From Chthonomonadales bacterium (GTDB taxonomy: Bacteria > Armatimonadota > Chthonomonadetes > Chthonomonadales > CAJBBX01), in NCBI GenBank assembly GCA_020849275.1, contig JADLGO010000067.1, forward strand, positions 62,001 through 126,000: a stretch of DNA of 64,000 nt. Reading direction: 5' to 3'. The notes under the pieces are model-generated. The model did no database searches. It worked only from the letters and a program-made list of their open reading frames with translations, and had not been told where the DNA came from. Made by a program: the position numbers and the translations under genes. Below are positions 15,913 to 22,300 of the stretch, one piece after another (position 1 is the stretch's first letter; every line of letters begins with the position of its first letter).

Positions 15913-16500
15913 GTGCCGAAAAGACGGGCGTTCACACTGATCGAGATTCTGGTGATTATCGCCATCATTGCTATCCTCGCGGGGCTCCTCTTCCCGGTCG
16001 TCGCCTCGTCGCGCGCGAGCGCGCGCCGGACCGGATGCATCTCGAACCTGCGCCAGATCGGCCTCGCCCTGCGCATGTACCGCGACGACACGGACGCCCT
16101 GCCCCTTCGCCTCTCGGCCATCGAGGCGGCCTACGTGCGCGAGCCGCGGGTGTTCGTCTGCCCGAGCGACGGCGCTCGCGGCCTGCACGAGGGCAACCCG
16201 CGCATGGAGGGCACCCTCTTTCTGCCCACCGGCGTAAGCTACGACTACGTGCCGATGTGGCGGATGGCGCACGACCTCGGGTGGTGGGATGAGCCGCCAA
16301 ACTTCGGTGAGGGGCGCTGGGGCGATCTCACGCCCGTGGCCGACTGCCAGTGGCACTGGGCGACGACGTTCAACGCCACGTGGGCGGCCAACCAGGCCGG
16401 CTCGCGCGGCTGGCAGATGATCCTGACGATGGGTGGCTCTGTGCGCAGGGTGCGCGTCGAGGAGCCGGTCGAGTCCTTCACGCCGGACCGGTACCGCTAG
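15913..16500 (+). CDS. Type IV pilin-like protein (prepilin N-terminal methylation motif)
   Basis: A 195-residue pseudopilin-like protein. The short basic leader KRRA is followed by [20 protein letters not shown], the class III signal cleaved and methylated by prepilin peptidase, with Glu5 present. Next comes [20 protein letters not shown], a segment common in the many pseudopilins of Armatimonadota and Planctomycetota. The C-terminal part is Trp-rich and unlike classical pilins. The GTG start at 15913 follows GGAGG. It stands alone, without type II secretion or pilus assembly genes. Confidence 0.87.
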
Positions 16501-16610
16501 CCGGCTGGGCGCCGCCCTGGCATCCCGCTGAGCCGCGGTTCACCGAGGCTTGCGCCCGCGAGCGTTTGTGCGGCCGTATGAAGCGGCCACTTGCGCACCG
16601 CCCCGGCAGG

Positions 16611-17156
16611 CTACTTCCTCAGGACACGAGCCCGAACGATCCTGTCGCCGGGCTTGATCTTTCGGACCACATCCATCCCCTTCGTCACCTTGCCAAACAC
16701 GCAGTAGTCGCCGTCGAGTTGGTGGTTCGGCGCAAGATTGATGAACCACTGGCTGTCGCCGGTGGCGCTGCGCGGGGCGGAGAGCGCCATCGCAACGGTA
16801 CCGATCTCGTGCGGCTTCGCGCTCCTCTCGAACGGGATGTTCCGGCCGGAGCCGCCGGATCCGATGGCGGGGTCGGTGAACGGACGCGTCTTCGTCTGGG
16901 GGTCGCCGGCCTGCACGACGAAACCGGGCTCGACCCGGTGCACGACGATGCCGTCATAGAACCCCTTCCTCACCAGGCCGAGGAAGTGCGCCACCGTCTT
17001 CGGCGCGTCCTTCGGGAAGAGCGCGATCGTCACCTTTCCTCGGTGGGCGACCGTGATCTCCACCTTCGGCGCGGGAGGCGCCTTCGGCACGGCCAACGCG
17101 GCCCCCACCAGGCACAGCGCGGCGAGTGTCGCCGCCGTGCGAACCCACAACCTCAT
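16611..17156 (-). CDS. Secreted cyclophilin-type peptidyl-prolyl isomerase
   Basis: A 181-residue PPIase with an N-terminal signal peptide ending near ALAVPKAPP, so it acts outside the cytoplasmic membrane. Cyclophilin motifs are VVHRVEPGFVVQAGDP (with the catalytic Arg), GSGGSGRNIPFE, and GDSQWFINLAPNHQLDGDYC. It lies 16 bases downstream of a second, related cyclophilin gene on the same strand. The pair probably arose by duplication, since their domains share most motifs in the same order. Confidence 0.9.
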   Translation of the reverse strand: MRLWVRTAATLAALCLVGAALAVPKAPPAPKVEITVAHRGKVTIALFPKDAPKTVAHFLGLVRKGFYDGIVVHRVEPGFVVQAGDPQTKTRPFTDPAIGSGGSGRNIPFERSAKPHEIGTVAMALSAPRSATGDSQWFINLAPNHQLDGDYCVFGKVTKGMDVVRKIKPGDRIVRARVLRK

Positions 17157-17172
17157 GCCGGGCTTCCTTTCG

Positions 17173-17841
17173 TCACTGAACCGTCATGGACGTGATCGCA
17201 TCGCCCTTCTTGATTGACCTCACGACGTCCATTCCCTGCGTCACCTTGCCGAACACGCAGTAGTCGCCGTTAAGAGTGGCGTTGTCGGCCAGGTCGATGA
17301 AGAACTGGCTGTCGGCGGTGTCGCTCGCGGGTGCGTTCAGGGCCATCGCTACCGCCCCCGGCACGTGCGGAAGGTTGTTCTTCTCGAACGGGATGGTCTT
17401 TCCGGATCCGCTGCGGCCGATGTACGGCACGTCGACGCCATCCGTCTTGCTCTTGGGGTCGCCGGCCTGTACGACGAAGCCATCGACCACCCGATGGAAT
17501 CGGATGCCGTTGTAGAACCCCTGGCGGGCCAGTTCAACGACGCGCGCAGTGGTCTTCGGCGCCGCCTTCGGGTAGAGCTCCATCGTGACATCGCCCCGAT
17601 TGGCCACGGTCATCACGATCGTGACGGCGCCCTCGCGCGGCGGGTTGAACGCCTTGTCGACGCTGGCCGCGCGCTCGGACTTCGCCCTGGCGGCCTTCGC
17701 CGCCTCGGCTCGCTGCTCGGCCTCCTGCTTTTCGGCAATGGCCTCCTGCGGGTCGGCGACGAGTTGCTTGCTTGGCTGAACCAGGAGACTGATGATCAGG
17801 GCGGCGATGACGACGCCCACGACGATGAGGATCGACCGCAT
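17173..17841 (-). CDS. Membrane-anchored cyclophilin-type peptidyl-prolyl isomerase
   Basis: A 222-residue PPIase. The N-terminus MRSILIVVGVVIAALIISLL is a membrane anchor or signal. An Ala/Glu/Lys-rich coiled segment (about 30-65) leads to the cyclophilin domain with FHRVVDGFVVQAGDP, GRSGSGKTIPFE and DSQFFIDLADNATLNGDYC. The start at ATG 17841 is favoured because the promoter (17900-17928) begins transcription near 17893; the longer open frame would start upstream of the promoter. It diverges from hisF. Confidence 0.9.
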   Translation of the reverse strand: MRSILIVVGVVIAALIISLLVQPSKQLVADPQEAIAEKQEAEQRAEAAKAARAKSERAASVDKAFNPPREGAVTIVMTVANRGDVTMELYPKAAPKTTARVVELARQGFYNGIRFHRVVDGFVVQAGDPKSKTDGVDVPYIGRSGSGKTIPFEKNNLPHVPGAVAMALNAPASDTADSQFFIDLADNATLNGDYCVFGKVTQGMDVVRSIKKGDAITSMTVQ

Positions 17842-17899
17842 AGTTGGCTCCACGAGAGAAGTCAAGGCGATTGGCCCCAACAGGCGTCGGAACCGTGGG

Positions 17900-17928
17900 A
17901 TTCTACACAAACCGCCCCGGTTTGTCAA
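17900..17928 (-). promoter_or_regulatory. Sigma-70 promoter of the cyclophilin pair
   Basis: Minus strand: perfect -35 TTGACA (17928-17923), 17-base spacer, -10 TAGAAT (17905-17900). It drives the two cyclophilin genes. Its -35 box lies almost exactly on top of the -35 box of the hisF promoter on the other strand. Confidence 0.7.
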
Positions 17929-17950
17929 ACCGGGGGGCCTGTGGTACAAT
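17922..17950 (+). promoter_or_regulatory. Sigma-70 promoter of hisF-hisI
   Basis: -35 TTGTCA (17922-17927), 17-base spacer, -10 TACAAT (17945-17950), each five of six to consensus. The -35 region is the centre of the palindrome CCCCGGTTT-GTC-AAACCGGGG (17916-17936), shared with the divergent promoter. Predicted transcription start is near 17957, about 60 nt before hisF. Confidence 0.7.
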
Positions 17951-18017
17951 ACCGCACCTTCAAGGGTCGGCTCTGTTGCGCGCGGCGCCGCGCGCCGGAA
18001 TCTGGAACGCCCCGTAG

Positions 18018-18788
18018 ATGCTTGCGCACCGTGTGATCGCCTGTCTGGACGTTCGCGAGGGTCGTGTCGTCAAGGGAGTTAACTTCCTCGCGCTACGCGA
18101 CGCCGGCGATCCCGTGGAGCTTGCCGCCCGTTACGACAGGATGGGCGCCGATGAGCTTGTACTCCTGGACATCACGGCCAGCCACGAGCGCCGCGACGTC
18201 ATCCTGGAGGTCGTCGAGCGTGTCGCCGAGCAGGTGTTTATCCCGTTCACCGTCGGCGGCGGCATTCGCACGACCGATGACTTCCGCCGAATCCTGAGTG
18301 CCGGCGCCGACAAGGTGAGCGTGAACACCGCGGCAGTGGAGCGTCCCGATCTCATTACGGAGGCTGCTGAACGATTCGGCAGCCAGTGCGTCGTGATCGC
18401 CATCGACCCGAAGAGCGTGGGCACGCATTCGGACGGCACGCCCCGGTGGGAGGTCTTCACGCACGGAGGGCGGACTCCCACGGGCCTGGACGCCGTCGAG
18501 TGGGCTCGCCGCGCGGAGAAGCTCGGCGCGGGCGAGATCCTGCTGACGAGCATGGACCGCGACGGGACACAGGCCGGTTTCGACATCCCGCTGACGCGGG
18601 CTGTCGCGCGCGGCGTCTCCATCCCCGTCATCGCCTCGGGCGGAGCCGGCTCCCCGGACCACTGCGCGGAGGCCATCCTCGATGGCTGTGCCGACGCGGC
18701 CCTCGTCGCCTCCATCGTGCACGACGGGGTCTGCACGGTCGCCGACATCAAGGCTAGCATTCGGCGGCACGGCCTGCCGGCGCGGTGA
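18018..18788 (+). CDS. hisF: Imidazole glycerol phosphate synthase subunit HisF
   Basis: The 256-residue cyclase subunit of IGP synthase. It turns PRFAR and ammonia into imidazole glycerol phosphate and AICAR. The (beta/alpha)8 barrel signatures are clear: catalytic Asp in [19 protein letters not shown], second catalytic Asp region [13 protein letters not shown], and phosphate-binding [15 protein letters not shown] and [13 protein letters not shown]. Length is typical. hisI follows in the same direction; other his genes are not in the window. Confidence 0.97.
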
Positions 18789-18842
18789 CCTGTGCCCGAC
18801 CCTCCTCCCCGTTCCGTCCCGTCCGATCTCGAAAGGCCAGAG

Positions 18843-19235
18843 ATGCGTATTCCCGGCGAGCTGAAGTTCGACAGCGCGGGCCTGATCCCCGCAGTAGTGC
18901 AGTGCGATGCCACGGGCGCCGTGCTGATGGTGGGATACATGAACCACGAGGCGGTTAAGCGCACGCTCGCGTCCGGGCACGTGACCTTCTGGAGCCGCTC
19001 GCGCTCCGAGTTCTGGGTGAAGGGGGAGACGTCGGGCCACACCCAGGAGCTCAAGGCGATGTACGTCGACTGCGACGCCGACTGCCTCCTGATTCGCGTC
19101 GAGCAGACCGGCCCCGCCTGCCACGAGGGCTACCGCTCCTGCTTCTTCCGGCGCGTCGAGGCCGATGGAACGAGCGCGTCGGTGGCCGCTGAGCGGCTGA
19201 AGACGCGCGAGGAGATCTACGGCCAGGGCCGATGA
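18843..19235 (+). CDS. hisI: Phosphoribosyl-AMP cyclohydrolase HisI
   Basis: A 130-residue HisI catalysing the third step of histidine synthesis. Metal-binding residues are in [17 protein letters not shown] (the DxDxD-like run with Cys) and [12 protein letters not shown]. The sequence [20 protein letters not shown] with [17 protein letters not shown] is diagnostic. The start at ATG 18843 follows GAAAGG and begins at the usual N-terminus; a GTG at 18792 would add 17 residues without support. No HisE domain is fused. Confidence 0.94.
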
Positions 19236-19339
19236 GCACCGCAACGGGCGCCGTTCGCGGCCCCGTAACGTGTGATGTACGCGTCGCCGCCAGGCCGTCT
19301 GGCCAGCCCCTGCGCTGCGCTGTTTCGGAGGTCCACTAC

Positions 19340-22300
19340 ATGGCTCGCTTCCGCTCGCTCCGGCTCGTGCTCGCCGCTCTGTGCGTGCTCGCCGCCGTGC
19401 CCGCGCTCGCCGCTCCGCCGCGCTTCCCCGACATCATGCCTGCCAGCCATCTGAAGCCGGGCATGACGGGTTACGGGCTCACCGTGTTCCACGGCACGCG
19501 CATCGAGCGCTTCTCGGTTCGGATCGTCGGCATCGTGAAGAACGGCAGCCTGATCGTGCCGGGCCACGACATGATCCTGGTCCACATGTCCGGCGGACCG
19601 ATGACGACACGGCAGGCGAACCTGATTCGCGGCATGAGCGGCAGCCCGGTCTATGTCAACGGTAAGATCATTGGCGCCTTCTCGCAGGGCGAACCGACCA
19701 CCAAGGAACCCCTCGGCGGCGTTACGCCGATCGAGGACATGCTGGAGGCCTGGGATCCGAAGCTGCCCCAAACGCCGGTCGCCTCTCTGCCGCCGTCGCC
19801 GATGCGAGAAGTAGCGCTCAAGGCGCCCATCGTCGCGGGCGATCGCCGCATCGACCGGGTGATCTACAACGTGCCCCCCGGGAGCAAGCTCCGCTCCCAC
19901 GGCTCCACGCTCGTGATGCGCGCGTGCACGACGCTCATGTCCGTGAGCGGCATCGGGCGCGCGGCCCGCGGGAAGCTGGCCGCCTTGCTGGAGCCTTACA
20001 ACGTTGAGGTCGTCCAGGGCGCGGCCACCGGCGGCAAGAAGACGGACTTCGGCGGAACGCCCCTCGTGCCGGGCTCGGCGTTCAGCATGATGCTGCTCAC
20101 CGGCGACCAGTCGATCGGCGCCACTGGCACGGTCTCCTATCGCCGCGGCAACCGGATCCTGGGCTTCGGCCATCCGTTTCTGGGGATCGGCCCAATCGAC
20201 GCGCCGCTCTGCTCGGCGTATGTCTACGACGTCTACCCCCTGCAGTCGGGCTCCTACAAGATATCGAGCCCGGGTCCGGTTGTCGGCTCCAGCACCCAGG
20301 ACCGCAACTTCTCCATCAGCGGCGTGATCGGCAGGCAGCCGCTCACCGTGCCCATCACCGTCGACGTGCGCGACGCGACCACCGGCCGCAGTCGCGTGTT
20401 CCACTCGCGCGCCGTGGCCCACCCGAATCTCTATGCCGCGCTCGTCAGCACCTCGGTCGCCTCGGCCGTGGCCGAGATTCGCAGCATCCCGGGTGCCGCG
20501 ATGGCGCAGATCGACACGACCGTGGTGGCCGACGAGCTCGGCAAGATCGAACGCACGAACACCGTGTTCGATATGAGCGGTATTGACGGCGCCGCTACAG
20601 CCGACCTGGACGACGTTCTCGGAATCCTGACATCCAACCCCTTCTACCCGCTGGGCATCAAGGGCGCCACAGTCACGGTGCGCATCGAGAGCGGCCGCAA
20701 GACCGCGCGCATCGAGCGGATATTCGTTAAGTCCGGCCGCTTCGAGCCCGGCGAGGAGGTTGAGGTCGGCGTTGTCCTCAAGCCCTACCGCCAGCCCTCG
20801 GTCACACGTCTGATGAAGGTGCGCATTCCGGCGAACGCCGCGACGGGGCGCCTGGTCCTGCAGGTACGCGGCGGCGCCGTGTCCGGCGCCATCAACCTGG
20901 GCGGTATCGTGATCCGTCCATCCTCGGGCCAGGGGCAAGAGCAGGCGCCTCCCACGAGCATCCGGCAGATGGTGGATCGCTACCTGGAGCGCGAGCGAAA
21001 CACCGATATGGTGGCCCGGCTCGTGATGCCGACGACCGCCGTGAACGTGGAGGGAGAGCGGCTGAGCAACCTACCGCCGTCGCTGGACGCCATCATGCGC
21101 TCGGCGCGCTCGTCGGGAGTGCGCATGGAGCGCGACGAGGTCCGCGTGGTCGAGCCCACCGAATGGGTCGTGTCGGGGCAGCAGGTGCTCGTGGTCAACG
21201 TGAAGCGCCGCGAGTCGCTCGAGGGCTCTGCGGGCGCTCCGCGGGCCGCGCCGCCCACGGCGCAGCCGGAAACGCCGCCAGCGGCCGCCTCCGTGTCCGA
21301 CGGCGACGAGGAGCCCGGCGACGCGGGCGCTGACGATCTCTATGCAGCGCACACCGGCGCCGCGCCGCGCCAGACGCCCAAGCGCTCGCAGCCCGAGGAG
21401 GGCACTCCGAAGGGCGGCGACACGGCGCGGACCAACAAGCCCGCGTCGGCCGACGGCGCCCAACCAGCGCAGCCCGCCCAGCCGACGCCGGCCCCGCCCA
21501 CTCAGTCGGAGACGCCCGTGTCCCGGGCGGCCAGGGTGTGGCGACAAGCCACGACGGCCGACTTCGCGAAGGGGGACTCGCACGGCGTCAGCGTCACCAG
21601 CGCCGGTGACCTGACGCTCACCCGCACGCTCCGACGCCTGTACGAATCGGACGAGGGCTTCGTCTGGTCGGTCACCTCGGACGGCGCGGGCGGCGTGTTC
21701 GCCGGCACCGGGTCACGCGGCCGCATCATTCACATCGACGCTACAGGCCGCTCCGAGTCGGTCGCCGACCTGCCCGACCTCTCGATCCATGCGCTCCTGC
21801 GCGCGGCAGATGGCACGCTCTACGCCGCGACCGGGCCGAAGGGCCGCACCTACCGGATTCGCCCCGGCCAGAAGCCCGAGGTGCTGCACGAGGCGCCGGA
21901 GAAGTACGCCCTTGCTCTGGCCCAGGATCCGGCCGGGAACCTGTTCATCGGCACCGCCGGCGGGCACGGCACCGTCTACCGGGTTGCGCCCGACGGCAAG
22001 GCGACCACCTTCTTCCAGTCGCCCGAGGAGCACGTGCTGGCCCTCGCCGTCGACGGCGCCGGCGCCGTGTACGTGGCGACCAGCGAGTCCGGCCTGGTCT
22101 ACCGCGTGTCGCCCGACGGTACGCCGAAGGTCCTCTACGACGCCTCGCAGCAGAGCGTGACCGCGGTGGTCGTGGGCCGCGACGGCAACGTGTACATCGC
22201 GACCGCGCCCAAGGGGGCCGTCTACCGCATCGCGCCGGACGGCGCCTCGAGCGTGGTCGTCGACAAGGCGCCCGCGGCGCTCACTTGCATGGCCTCGGCC

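What the first reader, a model, noticed from the sequence alone, without database searches (positions are those of the whole stretch)
17900..17950. Divergent promoters with coincident -35 boxes inside a palindrome
The cyclophilin promoter (perfect TTGACA, 17 bp, TAGAAT) and the hisF promoter (TTGTCA, 17 bp, TACAAT) place their -35 boxes one base apart at 17922-17928, on opposite strands. Both -35 boxes are at the centre of the palindrome CCCCGGTTT-GTC-AAACCGGGG. Two polymerases cannot bind at once, so expression of the secreted foldases and histidine synthesis would be mutually exclusive per round. The palindrome may also be an operator.
Basis: seen in the sequence. Interest (0 to 1): 0.5.

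Follow-up and report, generated by a model that had tools for sequence, protein, structure and literature searches.

The report
Back-to-back promoters sharing one -35
Two ordinary-looking bacterial promoters facing opposite ways, one for protein-folding enzymes and one for histidine synthesis, share a single -35 recognition sequence, so RNA polymerase can probably use only one at a time; the arrangement is real and partly kept in relatives, but it is of a known kind and there is no sign of a special switch.

Summary
Minus strand: TTGACA (17928-17923), 17 bp, TAGAAT (17905-17900), before two cyclophilin genes. Plus strand: TTGTCA (17922-17927), 17 bp, TACAAT (17945-17950), before hisF-hisI. Palindrome: 17915-17935. 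It is the only coincident pair found in the 64-kb window; 60 simulations gave none. In the order (31 genomes, probably Chthonomonadales) a cyclophilin gene lies directly divergent to hisF in 15 of 29 hisF loci. Of these 15, 13 keep the cyclophilin promoter; 13 keep an extended hisF -10, but only 4 have the hisF -35 in place, coinciding with the cyclophilin -35 (4 genera, 2 families). The palindrome occurs at one place in the genome at up to 3 mismatches and relatives have other or no clear repeats, so an operator is unsupported. Best reading: two housekeeping-type promoters whose polymerases exclude each other per binding event; both operons can still be expressed by time-sharing, so 'mutually exclusive' expression goes too far. 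In E. coli such competition matters only when one direction is strong (PMC12825309). New member of a known kind; low interest.

The parts
17923..17928 (-). -35 of the cyclophilin promoter (TTGACA)
   Evidence: TTGACA in 10 and TTGACT in 3 of 15 linked loci, 17-18 bp from the -10
17900..17905 (-). -10 of the cyclophilin promoter (TAGAAT, 17-bp spacer)
   Evidence: ATTCTAC on the + strand in 14 of 15 linked loci
17922..17927 (+). -35 of the hisF promoter (TTGTCA), overlapping the cyclophilin -35
   Evidence: TTGTCA 17-18 bp before the hisF -10 in 4 of 15 linked loci
17942..17950 (+). extended -10 of the hisF promoter (TGG TACAAT)
   Evidence: TGn before the -10 in 13 of 15 linked loci
17915..17935 (.). 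palindrome CCCCGGTTT-GTC-AAACCGGGG around the shared -35
   Evidence: one place in the 4.8-Mb genome at up to 3 mismatches; not found in the relatives tested
17173..17841 (-). first cyclophilin-type peptidyl-prolyl isomerase gene (N-terminal hydrophobic segment by eye)
   Evidence: Pfam PF00160, E 1.2e-41
16611..17156 (-). second cyclophilin-type gene, same direction
   Evidence: Pfam PF00160, E 1.9e-41
18018..18788 (+). hisF
   Evidence: Pfam PF00977, E 2.9e-84; 67-78% identical over 252-256 residues in 28 relatives
18792..19235 (+). hisI (phosphoribosyl-AMP cyclohydrolase), 3 bases after hisF
   Evidence: Pfam PF01502, E 1.6e-35

Best explanation
Two housekeeping sigma-70/sigma-A-type promoters stand back to back and overlap in their -35 region. 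The cyclophilin promoter relies on a consensus -35 (TTGACA) and a near-consensus -10. The hisF promoter is an extended -10 promoter that in this species can also use the other strand of the same -35 (TTGTCA). Sigma region 4 would have to occupy the same base pairs for both, so one polymerase excludes the other for as long as it stays bound; after escape the site is open again, and both operons are expressed by time-sharing. Strong use of one promoter would moderately lower the other. Shown: the elements, their overlap, and how far they are conserved. Inferred: that both are active, that the sigma is the housekeeping one, steric exclusion, and its size. The palindrome is partly the by-product of the overlapping -35 boxes plus a GC-rich extension seen only in this genome, with no demonstrated role.
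For: Elements and statistics. Conservation: a cyclophilin gene directly divergent to hisF in 15 of 29 hisF loci from 31 genomes of the order; cyclophilin -10 and -35 kept in 13 of 15 at 17-18 bp although spacer sequences differ between genera; a hisF -10 in 15 of 15 (11 TAYAAT, 4 TATACT), with TGn in 13. The same promoter forms are enriched order-wide over the reversed-pattern control: 67 against 4 for ATTCTAC-N16/17-TGTCAA and 241 against 5 for ATTATAC-N16/17-TGTCAA (sums over the tables made by me), as expected of a housekeeping class. The three other own-genome TAGAAT sites stand before unrelated genes, two of which I recognise as scpA and a TetR-like gene (names recalled). Coincident geometry at this locus in 4 genera of 2 families, reversed control 0. 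Competition principle: PMC12825309.
Against: No transcription start data for this organism. The coincident -35 is absent from 11 of 15 linked loci (distances 12, 14, 15, 33, or no -35), so the overlap itself may be neutral. One linked relative (L005) lacks the cyclophilin -35 and another (L030) lacks the cyclophilin promoter form altogether. Of 12 cyclophilin loci not adjacent to hisF that I examined (starts partly extrapolated), only one (L169) has TTGACA-18-TAGAAT, two have TTGACA-17-TAAAAT, and six gave no match better than 3 mismatches. The competition data come from E. coli promoters of another geometry.
Confidence: 0.7

Rival explanations
1. The shared -35 is a selected switch: the coincidence is maintained so that exported foldases and histidine synthesis are reciprocally expressed.
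For: Coincident geometry in 4 genera and 2 families at this one locus; the TAGAAT-type coincident pattern matches no other locus in 31 genomes. The two loci with 14- and 15-bp distances lack the T that completes TTGTCA.
Against: 11 of 15 linked loci do not have it. The four loci with a 12-bp distance keep that T although the spacing is wrong for hisF, so the T alone says little. A TATAAT-type coincident pattern matches 7 sites at other loci of the order. I found no functional link between the two gene sets. Direct linkage is not detected in 14 of 29 hisF loci (in two of them the cyclophilin gene lies about 1.5 kb further upstream; some contigs end early). The HisF tree neither supports nor excludes one origin.
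Confidence: 0.15
2. The hisF TTGTCA is incidental: hisF runs on its extended -10 alone. A TTGACA box followed by A automatically gives TTGTCA on the other strand, so only the spacing has to fall at 16-18 bp by drift. (Compatible with the best explanation, except for the use of the shared -35 by hisF.)
For: TGn in 13 of 15 linked loci but a -35 in place in only 4 of 15; distances scatter over 12, 14, 15, 16, 17 and 33.
Against: In the window and L003 the distance and the CCTGTGG-TAYAATA block are the same although the rest of the spacer differs; L011 and L012 lack TGn and yet have a TATAAT.
Confidence: 0.4
3. The palindrome is an operator for a dimeric repressor that shuts both promoters at once.
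For: Spacer-shuffle p 0.001 in the window; different inverted repeats near the site in L003 (p 0.024) and L008 (p 0.033); combined p over 14 loci 0.011.
Against: One place in 4.8 Mb at up to 3 mismatches, so at best a single-target regulator; sequence not shared with the relatives tested; 11 of 14 loci have p above 0.1; combined p without the window 0.13, or 0.040 with one locus per genus; four comparable palindromes in the window, this one included.
Confidence: 0.08
4. The palindrome is an intrinsic terminator.
For: The scan flags a 9-bp stem on the minus strand followed by CGGTTTGTGT.
Against: Both genes point away from it, so no flanking gene ends there; no proper T run; the shuffles give 1.5 such sites in the 4-kb region on average.
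Confidence: 0.02

Closest known systems
Overlapping divergent promoters, e.g. Pc/Pr of plasmid pLS20 (PMC4207663, passages seen)
   Same: Two promoters on opposite strands overlap, and a polymerase can bind only one of them at a time
   Different: In pLS20 the favoured reading puts the -10 of one promoter on the -35 of the other, and the regulator Rco controls both; here -35 coincides with -35 and no regulator is known
Bidirectional promoters of the Warman/Grainger type (PMC12825309, named sections; PMC10268837, passages)
   Same: Symmetry of a promoter element lets polymerase engage in two orientations; competition when one direction is strong
   Different: Those share the -10 and have starts 7-25 bp apart; here the -35 is shared and the predicted starts are about 64 bp apart

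Membership tests
Overlapping divergent sigma-70-type promoters | Near-consensus -35 and -10 at 16-18 bp on both strands, overlapping | tested here: met
Overlapping divergent sigma-70-type promoters | Both promoters transcribe in vivo | not testable with these tools
   no start-site data; conservation is indirect support
Bidirectional promoter (Warman/Grainger definition) | Divergent starts 7-25 bp apart around a shared -10 | tested here: not met
   two separate -10s with 39 bp between them; starts predicted, not measured, at about 17957 and 17893; definition from passages of PMC10268837
Operator palindrome of a regulon | Same motif at other places of the genome or at orthologous loci | tested here: not met
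   one place at up to 3 mismatches; other or no clear repeats in 13 linked relatives. No other genome of the window's own genus was among the 31
Intrinsic terminator | Stem followed by a T run, downstream of a gene | tested here: not met

The most novel reading that the evidence does not exclude
A single -35 hexamer, TTGTCAA, is kept as a two-way docking site for sigma region 4, and in several Chthonomonadales genera it sets a fixed, low-noise ratio between exported prolyl isomerases and histidine enzymes through polymerase competition alone, without any regulator.
Probability: 0.15. Interest if true: 0.5.

Novelty: new member of a known kind. Interest (0 to 1): 0.25.

Why it matters
If competition is real, this locus is a clean natural test of promoter interference through the -35 alone: relatives supply a ready series of natural distances (12, 14, 15, 16, 17 and 33 bp) and one natural absence of the shared -35 (L005). 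It complements the -10-sharing bidirectional promoters studied in E. coli. Otherwise it is ordinary.

Tried and rejected
Operator and terminator readings of the palindrome. A special sigma factor behind the TAGAAT -10: rejected, since the same form stands before unrelated genes and TATAAT forms are commoner (241 against 67). An RNA element in the hisF leader: no Rfam match at E up to 1 in 17000-19000, and the leader folds no better than shuffles (z 1.38, 188 of 200 shuffles at least as stable). A HisF tree to decide whether the coincident state has one origin: inconclusive (4 changes needed on the tree, 3-4 in bootstraps, 15 of 26 inner branches open). A first inverted-repeat test misplaced the centre for L003 and is replaced. 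The genome-contig scan returned 80 named loci, of which I used two titles only; the others are mostly from other phyla and were not analysed. Paper searches; only named the organism group (Chthonomonas with promoter, 9 papers, by title none on this locus). Searches listed mostly unrelated papers. They cover open-licence PMC papers only, so absence from print is not shown. PMC11661796 was seen in passages and not used.

Full report
Observation. Read directly, the intergenic stretch between a cyclophilin-type gene (17841 to 17173, minus) and hisF (18018 to 18788, plus) holds a minus-strand promoter TTGACA-17-TAGAAT and a plus-strand promoter TTGTCA-17-TACAAT whose -35 hexamers share five bases (17923-17927). 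The independent scan found exactly these two sites in 16000-20000, with 0.2 expected from shuffles. Over the whole window 8 sites reach 9 of 12 matches (2.3 per simulated window) and this is the only coincident pair; 60 first-order Markov simulations gave none. Gene identities are from Pfam: two cyclophilin-type isomerases in a row on one side, hisF and hisI on the other. That the isomerases are exported is my reading of their N-terminal hydrophobic stretches; no tool tested it.

Taxon. The window's genome is held unnamed.

Conservation. HisF was found in 29 of 31 genomes of the order. In 15 of these 29 loci a divergent cyclophilin gene lies directly upstream. This is a lower bound, since some contigs end early; in two more genomes (G006, G007) the cyclophilin gene lies about 1.5 kb further upstream in the same orientation. 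Of the 15, 13 keep the cyclophilin promoter as TTGACA (10) or TTGACT (3), 17-18 bp, TAGAAT, although the spacers differ between genera. The exceptions are L005, which keeps ATTCTAC but not the -35, and L030. Of 12 further cyclophilin loci not adjacent to hisF, with starts partly extrapolated, one (L169) has TTGACA-18-TAGAAT, two (L153, L156) have TTGACA-17-TAAAAT, and the other nine have weaker or no matches; so this promoter form is kept mainly, not only, where the two genes adjoin.

The hisF side. All 15 linked loci have a -10 (11 TAYAAT, 4 TATACT), preceded by TGn in 13 (not L011, L012); only 4 (the window L002, L003, L008, L010) have TTGTCA 17-18 bp from it. Distances between the cyclophilin -35 and the hisF -10 are 16, 16, 17, 17 in these four; 14, 15, 12 (four loci) and 33 (three loci) in others. 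The T that completes TTGTCA is also present in the four loci with distance 12, where the spacing is wrong for hisF. The exact coincidence is thus shared by four genera in two families but is not the rule.

How unusual is the geometry? The pattern ATTCTA-16/18-TTGNCAA-15/17-TANNAT matches 4 of 31 genomes of the order, each time at this locus, reversed control 0. The ATTATA form (spacers 15-17) matches 7 of 31 genomes with 10 matches, 3 of them this locus read from the other strand and 7 elsewhere. In 291 genomes of the phylum the ATTCTA form matches 12; the 8 outside the order show neither hisF nor these cyclophilins within the fetched stretch (about 1.5 kb each side, less at contig ends), and 2 of the 8 lie inside a long open frame. 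A TATAAT/TATAAT form matches 6 of 291, none of them in the order and none beside hisF or these cyclophilins. So the geometry is rare and recurs at other loci.

Promoter class. ATTCTAC-16/17-TGTCAA occurs 67 times in 31 genomes against 4 for the reversed control, and the ATTATAC form 241 against 5 (my sums over the per-genome tables). The three other own-genome TAGAAT sites stand before unrelated genes. I read this as the housekeeping promoter form, not a regulon.

Palindrome. CCCCGGTTTGTCAAACCGGGG occurs at one place in the 4.8-Mb genome even with 3 mismatches allowed. The TTG/CAA pairs follow from the overlapping -35 boxes; seven further pairs are extra. Shuffling the spacers gives p 0.001 for the window. 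Of 13 other loci tested (L030 left out), two have p below 0.05 (L003 0.024, L008 0.033), with different sequences; the other 11 have p above 0.1. Combined p is 0.011 for all 14, 0.13 without the window, and 0.040 without the window and with one locus per genus, a choice made after the first version of the test. Four palindromes with 9-bp arms and a 3-base loop, this one included, lie in the 71% GC window. I take the extension as particular to this genome and without shown function; a weak tendency to inverted repeats at the shared -35 is not excluded.

Mechanism. Two holoenzymes cannot both place sigma region 4 on 17922-17928 (inference from geometry). Exclusion holds per binding event. Whether it affects output depends on strength: for five E. 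coli bidirectional promoters basal activity was too low for competition; when -35 'up' changes were made, transcription rose in the intended direction in all but one case and fell in the other (PMC12825309: abstract, introduction, part 1 of 3 of the results, discussion). The window's -35 boxes match 6/6 and 5/6, and both -10s 5/6, so competition is plausible here, but 'mutually exclusive expression' of two operons does not follow. Closest known cases: overlapping divergent promoters such as Pc/Pr of pLS20 (passages) and -10-sharing bidirectional promoters with starts 7-25 bp apart (PMC10268837, passages). Predicted starts here are about 64 bp apart, so the latter definition is not met.

Verdict. 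Observation confirmed; interpretation partly supported; a new member of a known kind, low to moderate interest.

Noticed in passing
window 17978-17995: Perfect 18-base palindrome GCGCGCGGCGCCGCGCGC in the predicted hisF leader; the leader folds no better than shuffles and the region has no Rfam match.
   Followed up: partly
L008, L010, L011, L012, L015, L017, L018, L020, L021, L027, L030 (hisF upstream): In these 11 of 29 hisF loci a hisF -10-like hexamer ends only 7-10 bases before the ATG, so hisF may be translated from a leaderless mRNA; in the window the distance is 67.
   Followed up: partly
L005 (G008), upstream of hisF: Natural variant: the stretch spanning the two -10s is 7 bases shorter than in its congener L004 and the shared -35 is absent, while both -10s are kept.
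   Followed up: no
G000:C32:5370-5398 and similar matches in G005, G008, G009, G011: Several genera have a site in which a forward -10-like hexamer (GGTATAAT or GGTATACT) sits inside the spacer of an opposing TTGACA/TATAAT promoter; perhaps another overlapping promoter pair. Whether these are orthologous loci was not checked.
   Followed up: no
L193, L194, L196, L197, L200, L201, L204: Other loci in the phylum with coincident -35-like boxes that appear to lie between divergent open frames.
   Followed up: no
G000:C15:59207-59710: A third cyclophilin-like stretch in the own genome has an in-frame TGA.
   Followed up: no
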